Positions 44,168-58,269 of a stretch of 64,000 bases of DNA are shown piece after piece. The stretch's first letter is position 1, and the number at the start of each line of letters is the position of its first letter. Both the position numbers and the translations under genes were made by a program. Source of the DNA: Sulfurimonas sp. (GTDB lineage Bacteria; Campylobacterota; Campylobacteria; Campylobacterales; Sulfurimonadaceae); the NCBI RefSeq assembly GCF_026988655.1, contig NZ_JALSKT010000049.1:1-64000 (forward strand), read 5' to 3'. The notes beneath the pieces were generated by a model. That model was not told the DNA's origin. It worked only from the letters and a program-made list of their open reading frames with translations, and made no database searches.

Positions 44168-44838
44168 ATATTTTGGGTATCTTCTATCTCTTCTATCTTG
44201 TAGAGCATATAACCCTCATAATAATAACTTGTGTCAATACCTCGCATATAAAGAGTAAAGTCATCTATCTCGTCACTCAGAGCATTTTGAAGTAAATACT
44301 TTATCTCTATATCTTTAATTGGACTTCTTTGCATAGCAAGCAGATAGTCTTCTTTGTCTACTTTTGTCCAATCAACGACAACTTTTAACTCATGTTTAAG
44401 TATATGATCTAACCATATTCACATGCTTCGTCCATTACCCTCGCGAAAAGGGTGAGCAACATTCATCTCTACATACTTTTCTATTATTGTATCATAGGTA
44501 TTTTGTGGCATCTTTTGGATATTTTCTATGGACACTTTCAAGTAACTCACAGGTGCAAAACGAAAGTCACCTTTAGAGATATTAGCATCTCTAATTTTTC
44601 CAGCAAAAGGGTAAATAGTACCAAAAAGATACTCATGAATAGAAGACAGAGCTGCAAAACTACCAGGCTTTAAAGTATCTAAAAAAGCGTTTTCAAAATG
44701 AAAAACAGTGCCTGAGAGTTCTTCTGTTTTTTGGCGTTTTTTAGTTGTATCAGTCGAAGCATTGAGGTTTATGCCATAAAGCATTGCGCTTGAGGCGACA
44801 AGACATTTGACAAAAGTTCTTCTTGATATATTTTTCAT
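44164..44838 (-). pseudogene. Tat-signal Fic protein broken by an in-frame TGA
   Basis: 225 codons in one frame interrupted by one TGA at 44419-44421. Codons 1-139 give a Tat signal (ISRRTFVKCLVASSAMLY), then a Fic domain ending HPFREGNGRSM with catalytic H129. After the TGA the same frame continues with IWLDHILKHELK to DTQNI for 84 codons, matching Fic C-termini. The Fic motif expects Arg where the TGA stands, so a single CGA-to-TGA change explains it. Fic proteins AMPylate targets; an exported one would be unusual. Likely a recent pseudogene. Confidence 0.75.
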
Positions 44839-45244: not shown

Positions 45245-45422
45245 AATGAAGTCCTTTTTGTGTTTTGCTGAGAGAAGTATATACTCTTTGTGTGGTGGGT
45301 TTGTGATGTAAAAATGGAGGGCATATTAAAAGGTAAAACAGACTCTTAAATCTAATAATAATAGTAAAAAATAGGTTTACAAGTCTAATTTTGATACAAT
45401 CTGTAAAAAATAGAGGTCACTA

Positions 45423-46610
45423 ATGCTGGAAGAACTACGAGACTATCAAAGAAAGTTATTTAAAAAAGTAGATTTTAGTTATAAACGATATTTCTTTCAT
45501 CTTAATCTGGATAAAAAACTTGTAGGTATTATTGGTGCCCGCGGTGTAGGTAAGACTACATTTTTGATTCAGTATTTAAAAGCATTGGATTTGCCATTTA
45601 GTAAAAAACTCTATATCAGTGCAGATATTATTAGCATTCCCTCCTTGTATGAGGTTGCCGAAGCTTTTTCTAAAGAAGAGGGTGAAATTTTAGTGATAGA
45701 TGAGATTCATAAATACAAAGATTTTGAGAAAGAGTTAAAAAAAATCTATGACCTTCTGGATTTATGTGTGATTTTTAGCGGTAGTTGTGCACTCAAACTT
45801 GACAATGCAAAAGCAGATCTCAGTAGAAGAGCAATTATCTATGAAGTAGAGGGATTGAGTTTTAGAGAGTTTGTTGAACTGAGTAAAGGTATCTCTTTGC
45901 CATCGTTTTCATTAGAGCAGATTTTACAAAACCATCAAGATATAGCGTATGAACTTTTAGAAAAATTCAATGTAACATTGTTGTTTAAAGAGTATGTGAA
46001 ATATGGATATTATCCTTTTTATTTTGAAGATAAAGATGATTATCTAATCAGACTTAATGAGACAATAAATACTGTAATAGAAGTTGATATCCCTTCGATA
46101 TTTCCAATAGAATACGACAGTATCAATACTTTAAAAAAACTGGTACGTCTTATCTGTTTGTCGCATCCTTATACCCCAAATCTTAAAGAGTTGATGACAA
46201 AAATGAACATGCAAGATAATTACAAAGGCTTGTACAGATTTTTAGAATACCTCAATCGTGCAAAAGTTCTTCATGTCATACGCGCAAAAACAAAAGGAGA
46301 TAATATATTTACAAAACCGGATAAAATATATCTCAACAACACAAATTTACATTATGCCTATTGTGAGAGTCATAACACAGGAACAGTCCGAGAAGTATTC
46401 TTTGCAAGTATGTTGCAGGTTGGACATCATATAACGATACCGAAAAAAGGAGACTTTAATGTTGATGAGAGATATACTTTTGAAGTTGGTGGGAAAACAA
46501 AAAGTTTCAGACAAATTAAAGATATAGGTGAGAGTTTTGTTGTAGCGGATGATATCGAGATAGGATCCGGCAATAAAATTCCTCTTTGGTTGTTTGGATT
46601 TTTATACTAA
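45423..46610 (+). CDS. AAA ATPase (AAA_14/DUF4143-like) upstream of the SMC operon
   Basis: 395 aa. Walker A GARGVGKTTF (about residue 37) and Walker B ILVIDEIHKY (about residue 95), then a sensor GSCALKL and a C-terminal winged-helix/nuclease-like region (FFASMLQVGHH, FEVGGKTKSF). This is the AAA_14 + DUF4143 layout found on many mobile or defence-linked ATPases. It ends nine bases before the kleisin-like gene and shares its promoter, so it may be a fifth component. AGAGGTCACTA precedes the ATG. Confidence 0.8.
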   Translation: MLEELRDYQRKLFKKVDFSYKRYFFHLNLDKKLVGIIGARGVGKTTFLIQYLKALDLPFSKKLYISADIISIPSLYEVAEAFSKEEGEILVIDEIHKYKDFEKELKKIYDLLDLCVIFSGSCALKLDNAKADLSRRAIIYEVEGLSFREFVELSKGISLPSFSLEQILQNHQDIAYELLEKFNVTLLFKEYVKYGYYPFYFEDKDDYLIRLNETINTVIEVDIPSIFPIEYDSINTLKKLVRLICLSHPYTPNLKELMTKMNMQDNYKGLYRFLEYLNRAKVLHVIRAKTKGDNIFTKPDKIYLNNTNLHYAYCESHNTGTVREVFFASMLQVGHHITIPKKGDFNVDERYTFEVGGKTKSFRQIKDIGESFVVADDIEIGSGNKIPLWLFGFLY

Positions 46611-46619
46611 GGTAAAGTA

Positions 46620-47768
46620 ATGAATATAGAAAAATTATTCCACATACTCAATCGTCATCAGGAATTGATTTTTTATCTTTTTGAACATAGTGATAGAGTT
46701 GTTTATGTGAATGAGATAGAAGATTATTGCAGTGATACAAGTTTGGATGTTTTAGAAAATTTTGAAATTATAGAACTCAGTGATGATACAATAACTTTAG
46801 ATACTCGTGTTACGCAGTTTTTGAGAGAGTATATAGGGAACAATGATACAATTGAAATTTCTGTTATTGGGGAAATTATAAAAAGGATAGAACATTCTTT
46901 GGAGATAGCAAGTGAGTATCGTGAGAAGCAAGCCATTGAATTACCAAAAATTCGTCGAGAGTTGAAAAAAATCAATGCTATATTGTTCCAAAATTTGGAC
47001 AAACTTCGTATCCGTATTGATAGAGTTTATAAAAGTATTGATACTTTTGAGTTAAAATTAAAAGAACTGCATTTTTCCAAAACTCGCTTAGATGAGTATG
47101 AAAAAATACTGTATGCTTTTGAGAGTTTTTTGAAAAAAAATAGTACTTTGATGAAAAGCTTTTATAATCATGAACTAAATCTTTTAATCACTTTTATACA
47201 AGAAAACAAAATTGCACTGCATAGAAGCCTTATCCCTCTTACACAAGATGTAATCGAGTATATAAATCAGGTGCAAAAACAAAATGTTTTTGTAGAAAAA
47301 ATTTTAAAACTTAAAGAGTTAAAAGACAACTTTGAACTTAAAAATAAAACAGATATAGAGGAAAAAAGCGAAATGTTTCAGATAATGTTATCTCCTTTAC
47401 GGGTTGGTAGTAGATTAGATCCGGAAGTGATTCACACAAACGCCTTTGCAACCTTGCTTCATAAAATTTCTAATAAGGCAAGTATAAAATCTCATCAGGC
47501 GGATGCTATAGAATTTACTCCAGCTACAAAAGAAGGGATATTCTTAAATGTTGCCCAAATCCATTTTGCTTTTAGTTCGTCACAAAGTTCATTGATTGAA
47601 TTTTTACTGCATTATAATCAACTTAAAAATAAAGAGATTGATGAACTTGGAGAGATTTACTGTAAAATGATACTGCTTTATGAAGATGAATATCGAATAA
47701 GTAGTGATTTTTTTATCTATAAAACCCAAAAATTTGCAAAGGTATATTATGACAATAGATTTAGATAA
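46620..47768 (+). CDS. kleisin-like subunit of a Wadjet/MksBEF-type SMC system
   Basis: 382 aa. An N-terminal winged-helix-like region (residues 1-70) precedes long helices with coiled-coil character (100-260), then a C-terminal winged helix-like end. No sequence motif proves it, but size, fold pattern and place before a KITE-like gene and an SMC gene match JetA/MksF. It should bridge the SMC heads. It overlaps the next gene by 20 bases. Confidence 0.6.
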   Translation: MNIEKLFHILNRHQELIFYLFEHSDRVVYVNEIEDYCSDTSLDVLENFEIIELSDDTITLDTRVTQFLREYIGNNDTIEISVIGEIIKRIEHSLEIASEYREKQAIELPKIRRELKKINAILFQNLDKLRIRIDRVYKSIDTFELKLKELHFSKTRLDEYEKILYAFESFLKKNSTLMKSFYNHELNLLITFIQENKIALHRSLIPLTQDVIEYINQVQKQNVFVEKILKLKELKDNFELKNKTDIEEKSEMFQIMLSPLRVGSRLDPEVIHTNAFATLLHKISNKASIKSHQADAIEFTPATKEGIFLNVAQIHFAFSSSQSSLIEFLLHYNQLKNKEIDELGEIYCKMILLYEDEYRISSDFFIYKTQKFAKVYYDNRFR

Positions 47769-48288
47769 AGCCAAAGTAACAAAACTATTTTTGTATCTTA
47801 AAGAGGGAAAATTTCTTTCACAAAATAGCCCAAGTAAAAGCGAAAAAGCTCTCTTTGCCTATTTGGAACATCATTTTGAAACACTGCATGAGTATTTTAG
47901 TTATATAGATATAGAATTGGTATTGGGCAATGGATATGCTTATTTTGCATCTTCAGAAAATAAAGAAAAACGGCTTGAACAAATCTACGAACTAATAGAT
48001 TATTTGAATTTTTTCTATAATTATAGTCCTATGTTTGATGTAGGTTTTCACTTTCTACTTTCAGATATTGAGGAGAAATTAAAAGAGAATTTGACACTTG
48101 ATTTACGTCTTAAAAAGATAAAAACAATTAGTGGAGATACCCTACATGCCAAGCTTCGCTCTTTAGTATCAAAGCTCGAAAAACGAGGCTTTATTGGCTG
48201 TGAAGATGAATATCTGCAAAGCTATGTAGTGCTGAACAGTTTTACTTATTTGACGGCTTTTTATGATGCTATAGAGATAAAGGAGTAA
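47749..48288 (+). CDS. KITE-like subunit of a Wadjet/MksBEF-type SMC system
   Basis: 179 aa from the ATG at 47749 (AAAGGTATATT upstream). Reads MTIDLDKAKVTKLFLYLKEG, helical and winged-helix-like, 179 residues: the size of JetB/MksE, which binds the kleisin. Recognition is by position between the kleisin-like gene and the SMC gene, not by a clear motif. It ends three bases before the SMC gene. Confidence 0.6.
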   Translation: MTIDLDKAKVTKLFLYLKEGKFLSQNSPSKSEKALFAYLEHHFETLHEYFSYIDIELVLGNGYAYFASSENKEKRLEQIYELIDYLNFFYNYSPMFDVGFHFLLSDIEEKLKENLTLDLRLKKIKTISGDTLHAKLRSLVSKLEKRGFIGCEDEYLQSYVVLNSFTYLTAFYDAIEIKE

Positions 48289-48291
48289 GAA

Positions 48292-51200
48292 GTGGACGCT
48301 TTTATAAAGACAGTATTAATTAAGTCAGCAAAGTACGATTATGCTGAGGTTGATGTGGATAAAAATAATCTTTTTATCGGTGCAAATGGTGCAGGTAAAA
48401 CGACACTCTTGCGTGCAATACTCTACTTTTATACGGCGAATGCAAAAGGATTGGGCATTAGCAGTGCAAAAAAAATCTCTTTTTTAGATTACTATTTTCC
48501 TTATGAAGACTCTTACATCGTTTATGTATACAAAAAAGAGAAAAAGTACGTATTGGTTACGCTTTATAAAAATACAAAAATTCAGTTTCGCTTTTGTTTG
48601 TTAGATACGCAACCAGACATTAAAAAACTTTTTATTCAAGGTAATCATCCAAAAGAACGTCATGCACTCTGGAATGGATTGCGTGAAATGGGTGGAAGTT
48701 TAAGTAATGCAATGAGTGCGAGTGAATATCGGCAAGCACTTTATGTAAAACAGGGGAAAGTACGCTATTACTCCTTGTTTGAAGCAAAAGAGTATGAAGG
48801 GTTTACGAAAACATTAGCAAATATTTTTATTAATAATAAAGTTGATTCTGAGGCGATAAAAAGAGTAATAGTCTCATCTTTAAATGCTGCAAAAGAGATC
48901 GATATAGAGCGTATTCAAAAACAACTGGCAACATTTAATCAGACTTATGAAGATATTATTGCTTATGAAAAAAATATACCACTCATTGAAGAGCTGATAA
49001 AAAATGTTAAAGGGTTTGAGAAAGTACGTTATCAGCTTGAAGAGAACCTTGGTACATTGGCATTCTCAAAAATAAAAACTTTGCAAGAGTTGGAGACACT
49101 TCAAAAAACAAATAAAACACTCTCAAACAAAAAAAGTGTGACAGAAGATGAGATACAAGAACTTACACGACTTTACAACAAGCGTCTTGCGCGAGTAAAT
49201 GAGGCTATTGGTGAGTATAAAGGATTATTAAAAAGAACAAAAGAAAAACTTGCTTACTATCAAGAAGAAAAAATTGAAGAAAAAATAGCAGCTTATGATA
49301 CTTTAGCAGTTTTAGATAACGAATTGCAAGAGATTATCTCACAAGAAGAATTTATCACAAAAATTGCTTCTGAACTCAAAGTAGGACATGAAAATAGACT
49401 CAAATCATTAGAAAATAGTTACAGTATGCAGGTCAATACCATAGAGAGAAAAGAAACGGATCTTCTAACAAAAAAGAATCAAAAAGAGACAGATTTAAGA
49501 AACGAGGAGAATGATACTCTTCTAATGTTAGAAAAAGATTTTTTACAAAAAAGCAGCGAAACAAAAGAGCATATACAAAAGCTCGAGTTAGATATACAAG
49601 GGCTACAGAATAAACTTGAAAATGAAAAAAAACATCATTTTATTTTTTCAAAAGAGAAAGATATACATACTCTTGAAAAAGAGATAGAAACAACACAAAG
49701 TAAATTGCGTGAGTCTAAGCATAATTTAGAAATATTGGATGCGAAACTTGAAAAAGAAGAGAGTCTTGCAGGATATAATGAAACACGCATTTTGGAAAAG
49801 AAGCACCAACAAAAAGAGCTGTTTAATGAAAAAATAGAGCGAATTAAACAACTCTTAGCACCACAAAAAAGTTCATTATTATACGCTTTACAGGAAAAGA
49901 ACCTTGATTTGGACAAATATCTTTATTGTGTGAATGAAGACTTTTTACAAAGTGAAATGGATGCTGATTTTATACAAAATGAATCTATGCAATTTTTTGA
50001 ATTAAATCTTGAAAATTTTACAATACCGGCGAACTCTTTAAATGTACAATTGACAGAGTTGCAAAAGGAGAAAAAGAAGAGTGAAAAGTTTTTTGATTTA
50101 GAAATTGAGAAACTGCAACAAGATTTCAAAAAGATACAAAAGCAGATCTATAGAGATAAACGCAGTAGCGTAGAGGATATTAAAACACTGGATAAATCTT
50201 TATTGATATTAACAACACAGCAGAGTCGTTTGTTAGAAGAGAAAGAACATGCTTATGATGTTTTTGAAAAGGAGAAAAAACAAAACATTACGCAGTTACA
50301 AGAGGCTCTTTTGCAAAAAAAATCAGAAAAAAAAGAGCATCAAACACTTTTGCAACAATTTGAGCTAGAAAAAAAGAAACAATATGCAGTAACAAAGAGT
50401 TTTTATACTAAAAAATATAATAATATTCAAAGAGATTTTGATAGTGAACAACAAAAGCTACAAGAGCAATTAAGACAATTAGAACAACAAAAACAACAGC
50501 AAATAATTGAACAGGAAGAACTTTATAAAAAACGCCTGCAAGAGAAAAATATAGATGTTACAGCTCTTGAGAAGCTTAAAAAGCAAAAAAATGCTTTAGA
50601 AGAGAAACTGAGAAAAGTGCATTCTTATGCTGAGATAATTGCCAGATATAAAGGGGATAAAGAAGAGTATATTGATAAGCAAAAAAGTAATGAAAAAAAA
50701 CTCAAATCTTTACAAGAAGAACAAAAAAAATTACAAGTGCAGTACACAATTGACAAAAATCTCAAAACAGAGGAACTTGACAAATACAAAAGAGAGATAG
50801 ATGCAAACGCAGAGAAGATAAAAGCATATGAAACAAGCCTTGCAAGAGTAGCAGAATTTGAAGCAAGTAGTGCGATGCAAGAGTGCAAGAATATAGGGTT
50901 GAGTTATGAGCCAAATAATCATTATGAGATACTTGATACGCTTTTGGACGCCATTTATAATCTTTTGGCTAATTATAGAGAAATAGAGAAAGGAATAGCA
51001 AAACTACTTAATAAACTCCAAGATCTGTTTGGTACTTCATTACAGATCAAGCGTTATGAGGATGCTCTGCAAAGTGCTTACGCTTTAGAAGAGTATCACA
51101 CTAAAGAGAAGATAAAGTCTGTTAAAGAGTGGCAAACACGTGAGTTAGGGCTTATTGTTAAAAGTGTTGTTGATGAGTATAATACACTGATGAATAACTC

Positions 51201-51834
51201 TCAAAAAATAGAATCGCTAGTAAAAAAGATAAGCAAACTCTTTGGTGAAATTCAAATCGGTGTTGTTGATGAACTCTCTTTGCGTTATTTACAAAGCAAC
51301 AATCGTGTCATAGAAAAATTGAAACAGATAAAAGCTGTGAATGATGACAACCCTCATGGTTATGGTGTCTCATTATTTAATGATACAGACAACTCTAAAG
51401 AGATGCTTCGACTTTTAAAAAATCTGCGTGATACTATAGAGTATGAAAATATTCAAACACTAACACTTGAAGACAGTTTTGTGTTGGAATTTCGTGTTAT
51501 AGAAAATGGAAATGACAGTAAGTTTCAAACATCTCTTGATAATATTGGCTCAAACGGTACTGATGTTTTGGTCAAAACTATGATTTATATTGCAATGCTC
51601 TATATTTTTAAAACAAAAACAACAAAAAAAGAGTTGGCAATACATGTAATACTTGATGAGATAGGTATACTTTCTCAGCGTTATTTAAAAGAACTGATAG
51701 AATTTGCCAATCGTTATAATATTTACTTTATAAATGGTGCACCTGATGAAAAACTCATTGGTACATATAAAAGAGTTTTTCTTATCTCAAATAAAAATGC
51801 AAAAGCCGTCGTACGGGAGATTATTTCCAAATGA
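48292..51834 (+). CDS. SMC/MukB-like ATPase (JetC/MksB type)
   Basis: 1180 aa. Walker A at residues 30-37 (GANGAGKT) lies in an SMC-like head; a very long coiled coil (about residues 220-950) is broken by a hinge-like part; the second head half has Walker B IHVILDEIG with D1122-E1123. The signature motif is NIGSNGTD near residue 1084, in place of the LSGGE of classic SMC and MukB. Size and operon match MksB/JetC. GTG start with AAGGAG before it. Its stop overlaps the nuclease gene. Confidence 0.85.
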   Translation: MDAFIKTVLIKSAKYDYAEVDVDKNNLFIGANGAGKTTLLRAILYFYTANAKGLGISSAKKISFLDYYFPYEDSYIVYVYKKEKKYVLVTLYKNTKIQFRFCLLDTQPDIKKLFIQGNHPKERHALWNGLREMGGSLSNAMSASEYRQALYVKQGKVRYYSLFEAKEYEGFTKTLANIFINNKVDSEAIKRVIVSSLNAAKEIDIERIQKQLATFNQTYEDIIAYEKNIPLIEELIKNVKGFEKVRYQLEENLGTLAFSKIKTLQELETLQKTNKTLSNKKSVTEDEIQELTRLYNKRLARVNEAIGEYKGLLKRTKEKLAYYQEEKIEEKIAAYDTLAVLDNELQEIISQEEFITKIASELKVGHENRLKSLENSYSMQVNTIERKETDLLTKKNQKETDLRNEENDTLLMLEKDFLQKSSETKEHIQKLELDIQGLQNKLENEKKHHFIFSKEKDIHTLEKEIETTQSKLRESKHNLEILDAKLEKEESLAGYNETRILEKKHQQKELFNEKIERIKQLLAPQKSSLLYALQEKNLDLDKYLYCVNEDFLQSEMDADFIQNESMQFFELNLENFTIPANSLNVQLTELQKEKKKSEKFFDLEIEKLQQDFKKIQKQIYRDKRSSVEDIKTLDKSLLILTTQQSRLLEEKEHAYDVFEKEKKQNITQLQEALLQKKSEKKEHQTLLQQFELEKKKQYAVTKSFYTKKYNNIQRDFDSEQQKLQEQLRQLEQQKQQQIIEQEELYKKRLQEKNIDVTALEKLKKQKNALEEKLRKVHSYAEIIARYKGDKEEYIDKQKSNEKKLKSLQEEQKKLQVQYTIDKNLKTEELDKYKREIDANAEKIKAYETSLARVAEFEASSAMQECKNIGLSYEPNNHYEILDTLLDAIYNLLANYREIEKGIAKLLNKLQDLFGTSLQIKRYEDALQSAYALEEYHTKEKIKSVKEWQTRELGLIVKSVVDEYNTLMNNSQKIESLVKKISKLFGEIQIGVVDELSLRYLQSNNRVIEKLKQIKAVNDDNPHGYGVSLFNDTDNSKEMLRLLKNLRDTIEYENIQTLTLEDSFVLEFRVIENGNDSKFQTSLDNIGSNGTDVLVKTMIYIAMLYIFKTKTTKKELAIHVILDEIGILSQRYLKELIEFANRYNIYFINGAPDEKLIGTYKRVFLISNKNAKAVVREIISK

Positions 51835-52625
51835 GGCACTATTCAATACTCAAAAAATTATACGAAGACGGGGAGGTGAATTATTCACAGCTTGCCTCAC
51901 AACTACGCAAAGAGCTAGAAGATGAAGGATTAATAAACATTAGATTCCTCTCTGCGAGTAGAAGAAAAATTGTGGCCAAGGATGCTTTTAAAGCATACTT
52001 CAAAAAAATAGACAATATAGAGCAGGCACAAACACGTACAGAGTTAGTTCATGCAAAAAGTGATACGAAAAGAAAACGCATAGCTCCTCAGAATGGTCTT
52101 TATATTGCAGGTAATGCGTATATAAACAATAGGCCTTTACCGGAATTTTATGAAAGTACACTATTTTTAAAAAACATTCCAACAGTAGAAGAAAATACAC
52201 TTATTATTGGTGTAGAGAATTTTGATAATTTAGTTTACTGGAGAGAGCAACGTTATTTTTTTGAGGATGACAAGGAGTTACTCTTTGTCTATAGAAATAA
52301 AAAAATGTTGGACTTTCTCGAGAGTACAACAAACTCTGTTCTTTATTTTGGAGATTTTGATTTGGCGGGTATAAGTATATATGAGAATGAGATACGAAAA
52401 CGAAATAAAGAAACAAAACTGTTTATTCCTCAAGGTATTGAAACTCTCTTAGAAAAATATGGCTCAAGCAAGCTCTATATGCAACAATTCAATCAATTTA
52501 AAAATCTTACAAGCAAACTACCAGAAGTTGAAAACCTGATAAAGATGATACATAAATATCAAAAAGGGCTAGAACAAGAATTTTTTATTCAAAGTGAAGG
52601 GAAAAATGAAAATATTATTACTTGA
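51831..52625 (+). CDS. TOPRIM nuclease subunit (JetD/MksG-like)
   Basis: 264 aa. The C-terminal half has a TOPRIM-type site: the acidic IIGVENFDNLVYW and then VLYFGDFDLAGISIYE (DxD). In Wadjet, JetD is the topoisomerase VI A-like nuclease that cleaves plasmid DNA extruded by JetABC. The N-terminal part (MRHYSILKKLYEDGEVNYSQL) is helical and winged-helix-like. Overlap with the SMC gene is four bases and with the response regulator gene 20 bases. Confidence 0.72.
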   Translation: MRHYSILKKLYEDGEVNYSQLASQLRKELEDEGLINIRFLSASRRKIVAKDAFKAYFKKIDNIEQAQTRTELVHAKSDTKRKRIAPQNGLYIAGNAYINNRPLPEFYESTLFLKNIPTVEENTLIIGVENFDNLVYWREQRYFFEDDKELLFVYRNKKMLDFLESTTNSVLYFGDFDLAGISIYENEIRKRNKETKLFIPQGIETLLEKYGSSKLYMQQFNQFKNLTSKLPEVENLIKMIHKYQKGLEQEFFIQSEGKNENIIT

Positions 52626-53253
52626 AGATGATACGGCACTGGCAAACATTTTAGTTGATTTTTTGGAAGATGACTATGAGGTTGTGCAGACTTACAGTAT
52701 GAAAAAAGCCTTGCAACTTGCAGAAGAAGAGAAGTTTGATTTGTATATTTTTGACATTAATGTACCTGATGGGGACGGTATCTCTTTATTGAAAGAATTA
52801 CGAGATTTTCATGATGAGACACCGGCTATTTTCATCACTGCGTTTCATGATACAAAGTACCTCAAATCTGCCTTTGAATCAGGTGCAAATGATTTTATAA
52901 GAAAGCCTTTTGACTTAGAAGAGTTAGCGCAGCGTATAGAAAATATTAAAAGGCATTTTGGGCTGGAGAGTTTGGTGAAATTAGCTGATGCAATGGTATT
53001 TGATACTAAAACACATACGCTAAAAACAGCAGAAAAAACTATTAAACTGACACATAAAGAGAGTGACTGTCTGCACTATTTTTATAAGAACCGTCATCGT
53101 GTGGTAAGCTCTGATGAACTTTTACAAAACTTTTGGGAGTATGAAGATATGCCGAGTGATGATGCTATTCGTACTATTGTGAAAAATTTGCGAAAGCATA
53201 TTGGTAAGGAATGTATTGTCAATATTCGCGGGGAAGGGTATAAGTTTGAATGA
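52606..53253 (+). CDS. OmpR-type response regulator
   Basis: 215 aa from MKILLLEDDTALANI (the ATG at 52606, GAAGGG upstream). Receiver domain with the phosphoacceptor Asp in LYIFDINVPDGDG, the conserved Thr/Lys region (ITAFHDTK, RKPFDLEEL), and a C-terminal winged helix (TIKLTHKESDCLHYFYKN, IRTIVKNLRKHIGK, NIRGEGYKFE). It overlaps the nuclease gene by 20 bases and the kinase gene by eight, so this SMC operon and the two-component system are co-translated in sequence. Confidence 0.93.
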   Translation: MKILLLEDDTALANILVDFLEDDYEVVQTYSMKKALQLAEEEKFDLYIFDINVPDGDGISLLKELRDFHDETPAIFITAFHDTKYLKSAFESGANDFIRKPFDLEELAQRIENIKRHFGLESLVKLADAMVFDTKTHTLKTAEKTIKLTHKESDCLHYFYKNRHRVVSSDELLQNFWEYEDMPSDDAIRTIVKNLRKHIGKECIVNIRGEGYKFE

Positions 53254-54358
53254 GTTGGAAAAAAAGTCTTTTTACTCTTTTGTAGCGCTTTATCTTGTTT
53301 CTTCTTTTTTGTTTGTTTTATTATCAGGATATTGGTATTACAATGCGCAAAAAAACTCTTTGGAGAGTACAACATACTACAAGTTAAACCACATAGCCGA
53401 TAAACTCTCAGGACTCATTATTAATGCGCAAATGAAAGGCACAACACTAAATCTTCCGGATGAAGAAGGCTTTGAGTATAGCTTGGTTCCTGTCAATGAA
53501 GCAGTAAATATTGAAAAAGGATATTATGAACAAGATGGCTATAAAGTACTTGTCTCAGATGCAGCACAAGAACATCTAAATATAAAATATGTTGTGGTTA
53601 AAACAAAGGAATATTTTCAAAAGCTTGATGAACTTCAACAAGAAGTACTTTTGGTTATGGGTATAAGTTTTGTTTTTATTGGCATTATCTCTTTTATACT
53701 CGCTAAACTTTTCATGAAACCAGTACATCAAAGGATGGAGCAGATTGAGAGCTTTATTCAGGATGTCTCACATGAACTTAATACGCCTATAACGGCTTTA
53801 AAAATGAGTGCAAGCCGAGCAATAAAGAAAGAAGTTTATGACAAAAAAATTCTTACAAATATTTCTATAAGTACAAAACAACTTGAGAGCATTTATAAAT
53901 CGCTGACATTTTTGAACTTTAAGCAAAAACAGCAAGAAGCAGAGGATGTGAATCTTAAAGATATTTTGGAAAGGAGTGTCAGTTATTACAGTGAGCTTAC
54001 ACAAGCAAAAGATATAAAAATACAAACAGAGCTTGAAGATGTTTCTTTTTACATTGTTCCATCACGAGCTGAACTTCTCTTTTCAAATCTACTCTCAAAT
54101 GCCATAAAATACTCTATGCCACAAACAACAATAAGGATAAAACTAGATAAACACGTTTTTATCATAGGAGATGAAGGTGTAGGTATAGAAGAGAAAAAAC
54201 TTGATGAAATTTTTAAGATGTATAAACGTGAGTCAGATATAGCAGGTGGGTTTGGTGTAGGTCTGAGCATCGTTAAACAGATATGTGATGAATATGCTAT
54301 AGATATTACAGTCACATCTGAGTTGGGCAAAGGAACGAAATTTAGTTTACTCTTTTAG
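53246..54358 (+). CDS. sensor histidine kinase
   Basis: 370 aa from a TTG at 53246 with GGGAAGGG upstream; no ATG fits. Two membrane segments (about residues 13-32 and 139-163) enclose a short periplasmic sensor. The H-box is FIQDVSHELNTPITALKM; N, G1 and G2 boxes are LLSNAIKYS, VGIEEKKLDE and GVGLSIVKQIC. It lacks a clear HAMP. It should phosphorylate the regulator just upstream. The stimulus is unknown; metal pumps nearby make metal stress one possibility. Confidence 0.9.
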   Translation: MNELEKKSFYSFVALYLVSSFLFVLLSGYWYYNAQKNSLESTTYYKLNHIADKLSGLIINAQMKGTTLNLPDEEGFEYSLVPVNEAVNIEKGYYEQDGYKVLVSDAAQEHLNIKYVVVKTKEYFQKLDELQQEVLLVMGISFVFIGIISFILAKLFMKPVHQRMEQIESFIQDVSHELNTPITALKMSASRAIKKEVYDKKILTNISISTKQLESIYKSLTFLNFKQKQQEAEDVNLKDILERSVSYYSELTQAKDIKIQTELEDVSFYIVPSRAELLFSNLLSNAIKYSMPQTTIRIKLDKHVFIIGDEGVGIEEKKLDEIFKMYKRESDIAGGFGVGLSIVKQICDEYAIDITVTSELGKGTKFSLLF

Positions 54359-54367
54359 AAATACTTC

Positions 54368-54667
54368 TTACTCTTTTTCGTCTTTTGCAAGTTCAAATTT
54401 ACCTACTGCGCAGGATACAAAGCTTTTTGCTTGTGCGGTGGTATTTTGCATAAAACCAAGGTTTTCATCAGCCATAGGATAGCCTAAGGTTTTTAGTGCT
54501 TGACGAAGCTCAGTAATATCTTGGTCTTGAATATCTAAAGTTATCTCACGTGGCATCACTTCAAGATTTACTTGAATGTCTCCAAATTTATCTTGGAGTT
54601 TGCTTGTTAGCGTATTGGCGCAACCTCCACATTTTACATTTTGAACTTGAAAGTTTTTTTTTGGCAT
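54368..54667 (-). CDS. heavy-metal-associated (HMA) domain protein
   Basis: 99 aa. It starts MPKKNFQVQNVKCGGCANTL, with the CxxC metal site at C13-C16, and carries a C-terminal extension with a lone Cys (SFVSCAVGKF). It resembles CopZ-type copper chaperones with a longer tail. It is monocistronic on this strand and convergent with the kinase gene. A link to the CusA-type pump 0.5 kb away is plausible. Confidence 0.85.
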   Translation of the reverse strand: MPKKNFQVQNVKCGGCANTLTSKLQDKFGDIQVNLEVMPREITLDIQDQDITELRQALKTLGYPMADENLGFMQNTTAQAKSFVSCAVGKFELAKDEKE

Positions 54668-55155: not shown

Positions 55156-58100
55156 TTACTTCTTTCCTATATCCCATTTCATATAAATTTCATAGAGTAT
55201 AGGAATGATTACTAAAGATAAAACAGCGGAACTCACTACACCACCAAGCATAGGTGCCGCAATACGTTGCATCACTTCACTTCCTACTCCATGCGTGTAC
55301 ATAATAGGTGCTAGACCTGCAAGGATGGCAAATACGGTCATGAGTTTTGGACGAACCCTTTGTACAGCTCCCTCATATATAGCAGCATTAAGATCTTGTA
55401 GATTAAAAGCATCTCCTCTTGTTTGTTTGAGTTCATCCACACTCTCTTGTAAGTAGATTATCATAACTATAGCAGTCTCAGCAGCAACGCCAAGCAGTGC
55501 CAAAAATCCGACAATGACAGCAATACTCATCGCAAAGTTAAGCATATCTATGTAGATAAGACCGCCTAAAAGAGCAAAGGGTAGGGTGAAAAAGACGATA
55601 AGTGTTGGTGCTGGTTTTTTCAGTGCCATAAAGATGAGTAAAAATATCGCAACAAGTACAGCCGGAACTATCCAGATGATACGTTTCATAGCAGAATCAA
55701 GATACTCAGACTGTCCAGCCCACTCTATATAATAACCCGAATCAAATGTAATCTCATCGATAAATTTCTGAGCGCCGAGTTTGTACTCTGTCGCGCTCAT
55801 TCCCTCTTTTGGGGTAATATAGATAAAAGTAACAGGAGCTGCCATTTCGCTTTTTATCACAGAAGCACTTTGTCTGTAGGCTACTTTTGCTAGTGAGCCA
55901 AGAGGGACAAACCCGAGTTTTGTTTTGACTTGTATATCTCTAATAGACTCCAGACCTCTTCTTTCATCTCCTTCTAAACGCAGTGAGATAGGGTATCGCT
56001 CTAGTCCTTTATACATGGTAGAGACTTTCATACCACCTATGGCAAAAGAGGTGTACTCTAAGAGAGTATCTTTTGTCATGTTATATCGTGCAAGCTTTTC
56101 TTCATCAGGAATAATGTCGATGTAGTATCCTGCACTTGCCTGGTCGGCAAAAACGGAGAGTGTTTTGTCGTATTGGCGCAGTTTTTCTTCTATGAGTTTT
56201 CCGAATTTTTGCAAACCTGCCGCATCCATTCCGTAGAGTTTTATTCCAATAGGTGTTCGTATACCGCTTAAAAGCATGTCGATACGACCACGGATAGGAT
56301 AGGTCCAGGAATTTGTCAGACCCGGAACCTGCAGAGCAGCTTCCATCTCTTCACGCAGTTTGTCATAGGTCATGCCCTTCGGCCACTCTGATTTTGGTTT
56401 GAGTGTGATGATAGTCTCAAGCATACCAAGAGGAGCAGGGTCAGTTGCACTGCCTGCTCGTCCTGCTTTTCCGAAAACATTTTCAACTTCTGGAAATGAT
56501 TTGATGATTTTGTCTGTTTTTTGCAAAAGCTGTTTTGTCTGGTCTATACTTATACCGTAAGGAGTTACCGGCATATACATAAATGTCTGCTCATTAAGCA
56601 TAGGCATAAATTCCCATTTGAGGCTTTTATACAGCGGATACATGTAACCAAGCGAGAGTAAAACAAGTACAATAACCAGATATTTAAGTTTGAGTCCGTA
56701 TACAATAATGGGACGATAAAGCCAGATAAAAAACCTGTTGAGAGGATTTTTATTTTCAGGTAGAATCCTTCCTTTAACAAAAAATACCATAAGAGTAGGT
56801 ACGAGTGTAATACTTAAAAGTGCCCCTGCAGCCATTGCAAATGTTTTTGTAAATGCAAGGGGCGTAAAAAGAAGACCCTCCTGTCCACTGAGTGCAAAGA
56901 TAGGTAAAAACGAGACGACAATGAGTGCGAGTGCAAAAAAGATTGGACGTCCTACAAGTTGGGATGACTTGAGTATGATGGCAATGCGTTCTTTGTCTGT
57001 AGGCACTCTTGCTTCTTTATGCTCAAATTTATGTAGCATTTTATGGGCATTTTCTATCATAACGATAGAGGCATCAACCATCGCACCGATAGCAATAGCA
57101 ATACCACCAAGACTCATGATGTTTGAGCCGATACCAAAGAGTTTCATCAGTAAAAAGGTAAAGCCAACTGTGAGCGGTAGTACAATGATAACAATGAGTG
57201 AAGAGCGAAAGTGCATCAGAAAAAGCCCGATGATGATAACCACGATAACACTCTCTTCAATAAGCGTATCTTTTAAAGTATCTACGGCTTTGTCGATGAG
57301 ACCTGAACGGTCATAGACAGTGACAACATCCACATCATCAACTTTAAGTTCTTTCATCTTCTTTTGCACACGTTTAATCATGCTATAAACATCTTCACCA
57401 TAACGTGCCATAACAATACCGCCAACTACTTCGCCTTCACCGTTTAAGTCTGCCAGACCACGACGCGGTGCAGGGGTGAGTTCTACTCTTGCAATATCTC
57501 CAAGTTTTACAGGTGTACCTGCTTTTGTTGTGACTACGAGTCCTCTGATATCATCAAGGTTTGTGATATAAGCCTTTGCCTGCACCATCCACTCGTAGCC
57601 ATTTTTAATGACAATACGACCACCGGTATCGTTGTTGTTTTTTGCCAATACTCTTTTAATGTCCCCGATGCTGAGGTTGTACCTTACAAGGTTGTTATTA
57701 TTTACAGTGACTTGAAAGGTAGGAACAAACCCTCCAATACTGGCCACTTCACTTACTCCGTCAACGCCCATAAGTGCATATTTGTAATAATAATCCTGCA
57801 ATGTACGAAGCTCGGCAAGGTTTTTTGTTTTTGATTTGAGTGCATACTCATAAACCCAGCCCACACCACTGGCATCAGGACCAAGGGCTACGTTCATATT
57901 TGCAGGGAGTTGTGACTGTATGCTTGCTAGTTGTTCAAGTACACGACTACGAGCCCAATAAAGGTCAGTCCCTTCTTTAAAAATGATGTAAATAAGACCA
58001 TTCTCATACGTAGAATAGCCACGTACCGTGTCAATATTGGCGATAGCCAAAAACTGCGCAACAAGTGGATATGTGCCTTGAGATTCTACAATCTCAGGAG

Positions 58101-58269
58101 ATTGTCCTGCCCAGTTAATCTGTACAATAACCTGAGGAGGAGAGAGATCAGGGAGTGCATCAAGAGGAGTGTTTTTCATACTCCAAATAGAAGCAATAGC
58201 CAAAGTAAACGCAGCTATGAGAACGATAAATCTGTTTTTAATACTAAAAGCAATGAGTTTTTCTATCAT
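55156..58269 (-). CDS. CusA/CzcA-type heavy-metal RND efflux pump
   Basis: 1037 aa, full RND length with twelve membrane segments and two large periplasmic loops. MIEKLIAFSIKNRFIVL at the start, GAMVDASIVMIENAHKMLHK in TM4, and FGKAGRAGSATDPAPLGM are typical of the copper/silver (CusA) branch. It pumps Cu(I)/Ag(I) or divalent metals from the periplasm. No CusB adaptor or CusC channel is adjacent, so it is an orphan here. The promoter -10 is at 58298-58303 on the minus strand. Two AAACGCAG motifs (55976, 58207) lie inside. Confidence 0.93.
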   Translation of the reverse strand: MIEKLIAFSIKNRFIVLIAAFTLAIASIWSMKNTPLDALPDLSPPQVIVQINWAGQSPEIVESQGTYPLVAQFLAIANIDTVRGYSTYENGLIYIIFKEGTDLYWARSRVLEQLASIQSQLPANMNVALGPDASGVGWVYEYALKSKTKNLAELRTLQDYYYKYALMGVDGVSEVASIGGFVPTFQVTVNNNNLVRYNLSIGDIKRVLAKNNNDTGGRIVIKNGYEWMVQAKAYITNLDDIRGLVVTTKAGTPVKLGDIARVELTPAPRRGLADLNGEGEVVGGIVMARYGEDVYSMIKRVQKKMKELKVDDVDVVTVYDRSGLIDKAVDTLKDTLIEESVIVVIIIGLFLMHFRSSLIVIIVLPLTVGFTFLLMKLFGIGSNIMSLGGIAIAIGAMVDASIVMIENAHKMLHKFEHKEARVPTDKERIAIILKSSQLVGRPIFFALALIVVSFLPIFALSGQEGLLFTPLAFTKTFAMAAGALLSITLVPTLMVFFVKGRILPENKNPLNRFFIWLYRPIIVYGLKLKYLVIVLVLLSLGYMYPLYKSLKWEFMPMLNEQTFMYMPVTPYGISIDQTKQLLQKTDKIIKSFPEVENVFGKAGRAGSATDPAPLGMLETIITLKPKSEWPKGMTYDKLREEMEAALQVPGLTNSWTYPIRGRIDMLLSGIRTPIGIKLYGMDAAGLQKFGKLIEEKLRQYDKTLSVFADQASAGYYIDIIPDEEKLARYNMTKDTLLEYTSFAIGGMKVSTMYKGLERYPISLRLEGDERRGLESIRDIQVKTKLGFVPLGSLAKVAYRQSASVIKSEMAAPVTFIYITPKEGMSATEYKLGAQKFIDEITFDSGYYIEWAGQSEYLDSAMKRIIWIVPAVLVAIFLLIFMALKKPAPTLIVFFTLPFALLGGLIYIDMLNFAMSIAVIVGFLALLGVAAETAIVMIIYLQESVDELKQTRGDAFNLQDLNAAIYEGAVQRVRPKLMTVFAILAGLAPIMYTHGVGSEVMQRIAAPMLGGVVSSAVLSLVIIPILYEIYMKWDIGKK

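What the first reader, a model, noticed from the sequence alone, without database searches (positions are those of the whole stretch)
45423..54358. A Wadjet/MksBEFG-like SMC operon, probably plasmid defence
Five genes run head to tail: AAA ATPase, kleisin-like, KITE-like, a 1180-aa SMC ATPase and a TOPRIM nuclease with overlaps of 4-20 bases. Order and sizes match JetABCD, which extrudes DNA loops on plasmids and cuts them. The individual subunits are too divergent for me to name a known Wadjet type.
Basis: partly seen in the sequence, partly recalled or inferred. Interest (0 to 1): 0.72.

Follow-up and report, generated by a model that had tools for sequence, protein, structure and literature searches.

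The report
Plasmid-cutting SMC cassette in Sulfurimonas
Four genes for a predicted plasmid-cutting machine (an SMC motor, two partners and a nuclease) sit as an accessory cassette inserted just in front of a conserved two-component regulator gene next to a metal-efflux pump in a Sulfurimonas-type bacterium; it is a divergent but recognisable member of the known MksBEFG/Wadjet defence family.

Summary
The system is four genes, mksF-E-B-G (46620-52625), not five. MksE matches Pfam MksE, MksB matches DUF3584, and MksG matches DUF7281 with an intact TOPRIM. The AlphaFold model of MksF finds MukF kleisins as its top seven PDB matches. PADLOC models match only weakly (and MksF not at all), so no Wadjet type (I-III) can be assigned.

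The ATPase upstream and the two-component genes downstream are not part of the core. Genome G174 has ATPase-RR-HK with no mks between: a matching empty site. The boundaries fall at the mksF and RR start codons, and MksG's last codons are read out of the RR gene. The closest same-genus system (G055) sits in a different operon, which also has an empty counterpart (G032).

MksE occurs in 34 of 135 genomes of the genus, at several loci. I found no SMC hinge or ScpA in 21 relatives and no MukB in 60, so a conserved housekeeping role is unlikely and an accessory defence role likely. Plasmid cleavage itself is inferred, not shown. New points: start-codon insertion sites, and a weak link to neighbouring AAA-ATPase genes.

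The parts
46620..47768 (+). mksF/jetA-like kleisin, 382 aa: N-terminal winged helix, helical middle, disordered linker, C-terminal winged helix
   Evidence: No Pfam or PADLOC match; AlphaFold model pLDDT 78.5; Foldseek ranks 1-7 all MukF or MukE-MukF chains, best E 9.3e-4, JetA chains also listed; 50% identical to L011 MksF
47749..48288 (+). mksE/jetB-like KITE, 179 aa from ATG 47749
   Evidence: PF21980 MksE E 3.6e-24, above cut-off; 57% identical to L011 MksE
48292..51834 (+). mksB/jetC-like SMC ATPase, 1180 aa: Walker A at 30, signature at 1087, Walker B D1122-E1123, charged coiled-coil-like middle
   Evidence: PF12128 DUF3584 E 2.6e-33 over 18-1164; motifs; PADLOC JetC1 6.3e-6 and LmuB 3.6e-7
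51831..52625 (+). mksG/jetD-like nuclease, 264 aa: N-terminal winged helix plus TOPRIM; E129, D175, D177 and E248/E250 invariant in 12 aligned MksG; last codons and stop are read out of the RR gene
   Evidence: PF23947 DUF7281 3.7e-11; JetD3 3.8e-7; alignment; model residues 87-256 on Topo VIA 1d3y, Z 7.0, 154 aligned, rmsd 4.4; junction
46618..52605 (+). insert (about 5.99 kb) absent from the matching site of genome G174
   Evidence: window 45328-46628 = L066 3775-5074 and window 52597-54357 = L066 5056-6816; junction alignment
45423..46610 (+). AAA_14-type ATPase (395 aa, DUF4143-like architecture by eye); separate occupant of the site, not part of the core
   Evidence: AAA_14 2.6e-22; PADLOC candidate PDC-S01 6e-23; 96% identical copy at the G174 site without mks
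52606..53253 (+). host OmpR-type response regulator, 20 bp overlap with mksG
   Evidence: PF00072 3.7e-27 and PF00486 8.5e-19; same gene without mks upstream in relatives
53246..54358 (+). host sensor histidine kinase (start uncertain; longest ORF from 53201)
   Evidence: HATPase_c and HisKA; matches at E <= 1e-60 in 95 of 135 genomes of the genus

Best explanation
46620-52625 encodes a divergent MksBEFG/JetABCD (Wadjet-like) complex carried as an accessory four-gene cassette. Inferred working, by homology with studied type I systems: MksB dimers bridged by the MksF kleisin and held by MksE KITE dimers use ATP to extrude DNA loops; small closed circles such as plasmids are fully reeled in, and MksG, a CAP-TOPRIM nuclease, then cuts them. 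In this genome the cassette lies between a separately mobile ATPase gene and the start codon of a response regulator next to a metal-efflux locus, and is probably transcribed from upstream. Shown here: gene content, folds or families, intact catalytic residues, patchy distribution, matching empty site. Inferred: loop extrusion, plasmid cleavage, transcription, and insertion (rather than loss in G174).
For: Families. Kleisin fold. Nuclease: TOPRIM E/DxD and the C-terminal ExE invariant across 12 MksG; the ExE spacing matches C. glutamicum MksG E349/E351 (PMC10123090); Topo VIA match. SMC motifs. Order F-E-B-G in 4 close systems (window, L011, L074, L075) and as mksFEBG in C. glutamicum and Pseudomonas (PMC10123090). 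Patchy: MksE in 34/135 genomes, 19/79 of good quality; mksG hits in 10/149. Matching empty sites: window; G055/G032. No SMC hinge or ScpA in 21 genomes, no MukB in 60, so it is not one of those housekeeping condensins.
Against: Sequence is far from every characterised Wadjet: no true PDB match by profile for MksB, MksG or MksF, PADLOC matches weak and none for MksF. The MksG model is only moderately confident (pLDDT 68.9) and its TOPRIM match (Z 7.0) lies in the range where chance matches occur. No activity data for this branch.
Confidence: 0.85

Rival explanations
1. It is a housekeeping MukBEF/MksBEF-type condensin for chromosome segregation, with the TOPRIM protein as an auxiliary.
For: Relatives lack SMC hinge, ScpA and MukB, so this may be the only condensin-like complex in the cell; MksF folds like MukF.
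Against: About three quarters of the genus lack MksE; loci differ between genomes and include several distinct mks types plus JetABCD-like loci; nuclease residues are conserved.
Confidence: 0.06
2. It is a five-component system in which the upstream AAA ATPase is a functional partner (regulator or extra nuclease).
For: AAA-ATPase genes (AAA_14 or AAA-ATPase_like/PDDEXK_9) are immediate neighbours of mks in Sulfurimonas (2 loci), a Sulfurospirillum MAG, a Campylobacterales MAG and Persicobacter: 6 of 62 neighbour genes against 1 of 234 others, Fisher p 4e-4.
Against: The L011 system lacks it; the same ATPase (96%) stands without mks in G174; the ATPase family is found in 74 of 135 genomes, often in several copies; two different ATPase families are pooled, the families were chosen after seeing the data, and mobile genes cluster.
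Confidence: 0.1
3. The operon includes the two-component system, which switches the defence on in response to metal stress.
For: Overlapping genes mksG-RR-HK; L074 also has mks between an RR and an HK gene.
Against: RR-HK is found without mks beside it in the relatives inspected; L011 is in an unrelated ABC-transporter operon.
Confidence: 0.05

Closest known systems
MksBEFG of Corynebacterium glutamicum (Wadjet type I; PMC10123090)
   Same: Gene order F-E-B-G, condensin-like SMC with kleisin and KITE, CAP-TOPRIM nuclease with conserved acidic residues and C-terminal ExE
   Different: No sequence-level match to solved chains; MksG shorter (264 aa, against C. glutamicum numbering that reaches at least residue 351), with a reduced N-terminal part
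JetABCD (Wadjet types I-III, PADLOC nomenclature)
   Same: Subunit classes, order A-B-C-D; weak profile matches to JetB1, JetC1, JetD3
   Different: Too divergent to assign a type; the JetA-like subunit matches no PADLOC model
MukBEF
   Same: MksF folds as MukF; PF21980 also rings in E. coli
   Different: Extra TOPRIM nuclease; accessory distribution
Bacteroidota plasmid mks loci (Persicobacter pPP6 NZ_AP025298.1, Phocaeicola massiliensis OY725996.1)
   Same: Same four-gene order, 25-34% identity over MksB pieces
   Different: Plasmid-borne; in pPP6 flanked by AAA-ATPase_like genes

Membership tests
MksBEFG/Wadjet (broad) | Four adjacent genes kleisin-KITE-SMC-TOPRIM nuclease | tested here: met
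MksBEFG/Wadjet (broad) | SMC subunit with Walker A, signature, Walker B and long coiled coil of the MukB/JetC class | tested here: met
   DUF3584 over the whole length; motifs
MksBEFG/Wadjet (broad) | Kleisin subunit of MukF/JetA fold | tested here: met
   Foldseek top 7 all MukBEF/MukEF chains, best E 9.3e-4; two winged-helix ends and disordered linker in the model. VIA Z 12.5-12.9 for MukF is not above unrelated helical bundles
MksBEFG/Wadjet (broad) | KITE subunit MksE/JetB | tested here: met
   PF21980 3.6e-24
MksBEFG/Wadjet (broad) | CAP-TOPRIM nuclease with E and DxD metal site | tested here: met
   DUF7281 and JetD3 matches; invariant E129, D175, D177, E248, E250; Topo VIA match supportive only, Z 7.0
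MksBEFG/Wadjet (broad) | Accessory, patchy distribution | tested here: met
MksBEFG/Wadjet (broad) | ATP-dependent loop extrusion and cleavage of small circular DNA | not testable with these tools
   needs biochemistry and plasmid assays
Wadjet type I, II or III specifically | Clear match of all subunits to one type's profiles | tested here: inconclusive
   JetB1 5e-4, JetC1 6e-6, JetD3 4e-7, no JetA match
MukBEF/MksBEF housekeeping condensin | Conserved at one locus in most relatives | tested here: not met
   34 of 135 genomes, several loci
Five-gene unit including the AAA ATPase | ATPase gene present in all close systems | tested here: not met
   absent at L011; ATPase without mks in G174

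The most novel reading that the evidence does not exclude
MksFEBG cassettes of this branch work with, or are controlled by, neighbouring P-loop ATPase/PD-(D/E)XK genes, and they and other defence cassettes (type I restriction, MntA/HepT-like pairs) enter host operons at the start codon of the downstream gene, in bacteria where no housekeeping SMC was found and the defence SMC may be the only condensin-like complex.
Probability: 0.12. Interest if true: 0.6.

Novelty: new member of a known kind. Interest (0 to 1): 0.4.

Why it matters
It extends plasmid-cutting SMC systems to a divergent branch in Campylobacterota (and Bacteroidota plasmids) that PADLOC typing models barely see. Because no Smc-ScpAB or MukB was found in sampled relatives, these bacteria could test how a plasmid-cutting SMC spares the chromosome when no housekeeping condensin competes for it. 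The matching empty sites give natural paired genomes with and without the cassette.

Tried and rejected
Promoter capture (the cassette taking over the RR's own promoter): rejected, because the region upstream of the ATPase is similar to that of another copy of the ATPase elsewhere (L073; local alignment score 30 against a shuffle mean of 14) and not to RR upstream regions. ATPase as obligatory fifth subunit: not supported by L011 and G174. Sequence profile search of the PDB for MksB, MksG and MksF gave no true match, and Foldseek of the MksG model gave no hit below 0.001, so MksG rests on profiles, residues and a middling Topo VIA alignment; no solved JetD chain appeared in its lists, which proves nothing. 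Phage records: no MksB match. Viral contigs: two distant matches only. Consensus promoter and terminator counts do not exceed shuffles, so the transcription start is undecided. General 'always inside operons' claim: neighbours are co-directional in 47 of 62 cases, but I had no genome-wide baseline and many loci share one site. A paper on restriction systems inserting into operons (known to me from memory): not held. Polarity: precise loss of mks in G174 is not excluded.

Full report
Observation. Two neighbouring pairs among the five overlap (mksF/mksE 20 bp, mksB/mksG 4 bp), the others are 3-9 bp apart, and mksG also overlaps the next gene by 20 bp.

Identity of the four core proteins. Gene 3 is MksE (PF21980, 3.6e-24), gene 4 is a DUF3584 SMC over its whole length (2.6e-33) with Walker A at residue 30, signature at 1087 and Walker B at 1122-1123. 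Gene 5 matches DUF7281 (3.7e-11) and, in PADLOC, JetD3 (3.8e-7); its TOPRIM glutamate E129 and D175xD177 are invariant in 12 aligned MksG, as are E248 and E250, which have the spacing of E349/E351 proposed as nucleophiles in C. glutamicum MksG (PMC10123090). The AlphaFold model of gene 5 is moderate (pLDDT 68.9); residues 1-71 form a winged helix and 87-256 align with topoisomerase VI-A (1d3y, Z 7.0, 154 residues, rmsd 4.4), which is supportive but within the range of chance Z. Gene 2 has no Pfam or PADLOC match, but its model (pLDDT 78.5) has winged helices at both ends around a helical middle and a disordered linker, and its seven best Foldseek hits are all chains of MukBEF or MukEF structures (best E 9.3e-4), with two E. 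coli JetABC entries further down. In the VIA list MukF reaches Z 12.5-12.9, not above unrelated helical bundles, so the Foldseek ranking and domain layout carry this point.

How divergent. Profiles of MksB, MksG and MksF find no true relative in the PDB. PADLOC matches are weak and absent for MksF. I therefore file it under MksBEFG/Wadjet in the broad sense and assign no type.

Distribution. MksG relatives occur in 10 of 149 related genomes, and MksE over the family cut-off in 34 of 135 genomes of the genus, 19 of 79 of good quality. Several kinds coexist: F-E-B-G like the window (G055 in the same genus; L074 and L075 in other Campylobacterota MAGs), a second F-E-B-G group with a 1230-aa MksB, G-F-E-B sets often beside an aminopeptidase-like gene, and sets with JetA/JetC/JetD-like sizes and order (L124, L125, L129, L130, L140; by size and order only). 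No SMC hinge or ScpA was found in 21 relatives although positive controls rang, nor MukB in 60.

The cassette and its site. In genome G174 the same ATPase (96% protein identity) is followed directly by the same RR and HK: window 45328-46628 matches L066 3775-5074 and window 52597-54357 matches L066 5056-6816. The missing segment starts at the mksF start codon region and ends at the RR start codon; MksG's last codons and stop are read out of the RR gene, whereas MksG of the three closest systems ends at residue 253-262. Insertion is the simpler reading; exact loss in G174 is not excluded. The ATPase segment is 92% identical in DNA while the two-component segment is 83%, which suggests that the ATPase moves on its own; its upstream region resembles that of another copy elsewhere. 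In other relatives the RR is preceded by other genes, including a small pair in G153 and G011 that looks like MntA/HepT by eye (not profile-tested).

A second case. In G055 mksFEBG lies between btuF-like and btuD-like transporter genes (named by eye); G032 has these two overlapping, with no insert, and G047 has genes that look like a type I restriction system (by eye) at the same place. So this branch occurs as a four-gene unit without the ATPase or the regulator genes.

The ATPase question. AAA-ATPase genes of two families are immediate neighbours of mks in five loci: 6 of 62 neighbours against 1 of 234 other genes, p 4e-4. The families were pooled and chosen after seeing the data, and mobile genes cluster, so I treat this as a lead.

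Mechanism. From studied type I systems (reviewed in PMC10586767; PMC10123090): loop extrusion by the SMC part, then cleavage of the fully reeled-in circle by JetD/MksG. Here motifs and folds are shown; extrusion and cutting are inferred.

Verdict. A new, divergent member of a known kind, with an unusually clear accessory-cassette context. Confidence 0.85; interest 0.4.

Noticed in passing
window 44419-44838 (-): Chimeric ORF: its start resembles the N-terminus of the long 'NISRR.FVKG' gene intact in L071 (566 aa, copper-oxidase-like by eye), then it runs into a Fic/DOC domain (PF02661 7.6e-10): a recombination scar next to the metal locus.
   Followed up: partly
window 54368-54667 and 55156-58269 (-): HMA-domain protein (below cut-off) and an AcrB-type RND pump (3e-210) beside the two-component genes, suggesting a metal-efflux locus.
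   Followed up: partly
L017 74-7830 (same locus as L149): An MksG-like gene separated from mksFEB by a PLD-SNF2-type helicase (1037 aa) and an Eco57I-type methylase (1291 aa) in a tight co-directional run: one defence cassette nested in another.
   Followed up: partly
L141 4303-9372 and L148 69-2545: A further variant: short 868-aa SMC, then an MksG-like protein, then 390-aa and 168-aa proteins that could be MksF and MksE (order B-G-F-E); L148 seems to lack the nuclease.
   Followed up: no
L135: A decayed mks locus: MksG, MksF and MksB broken into several ORFs, showing loss in progress.
   Followed up: no
L076 11642-12634: JetD1-type nuclease (PADLOC 4.2e-59) paired with MksFEB of another branch, i.e. 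possible exchange of the nuclease subunit between types.
   Followed up: no
L067, L068, L071, L072, L073 upstream of the RR gene: A TACAAT box lies within about 15 bases of the RR start codon in relatives where no ATPase precedes the RR, hinting at leaderless transcription of the regulator.
   Followed up: no
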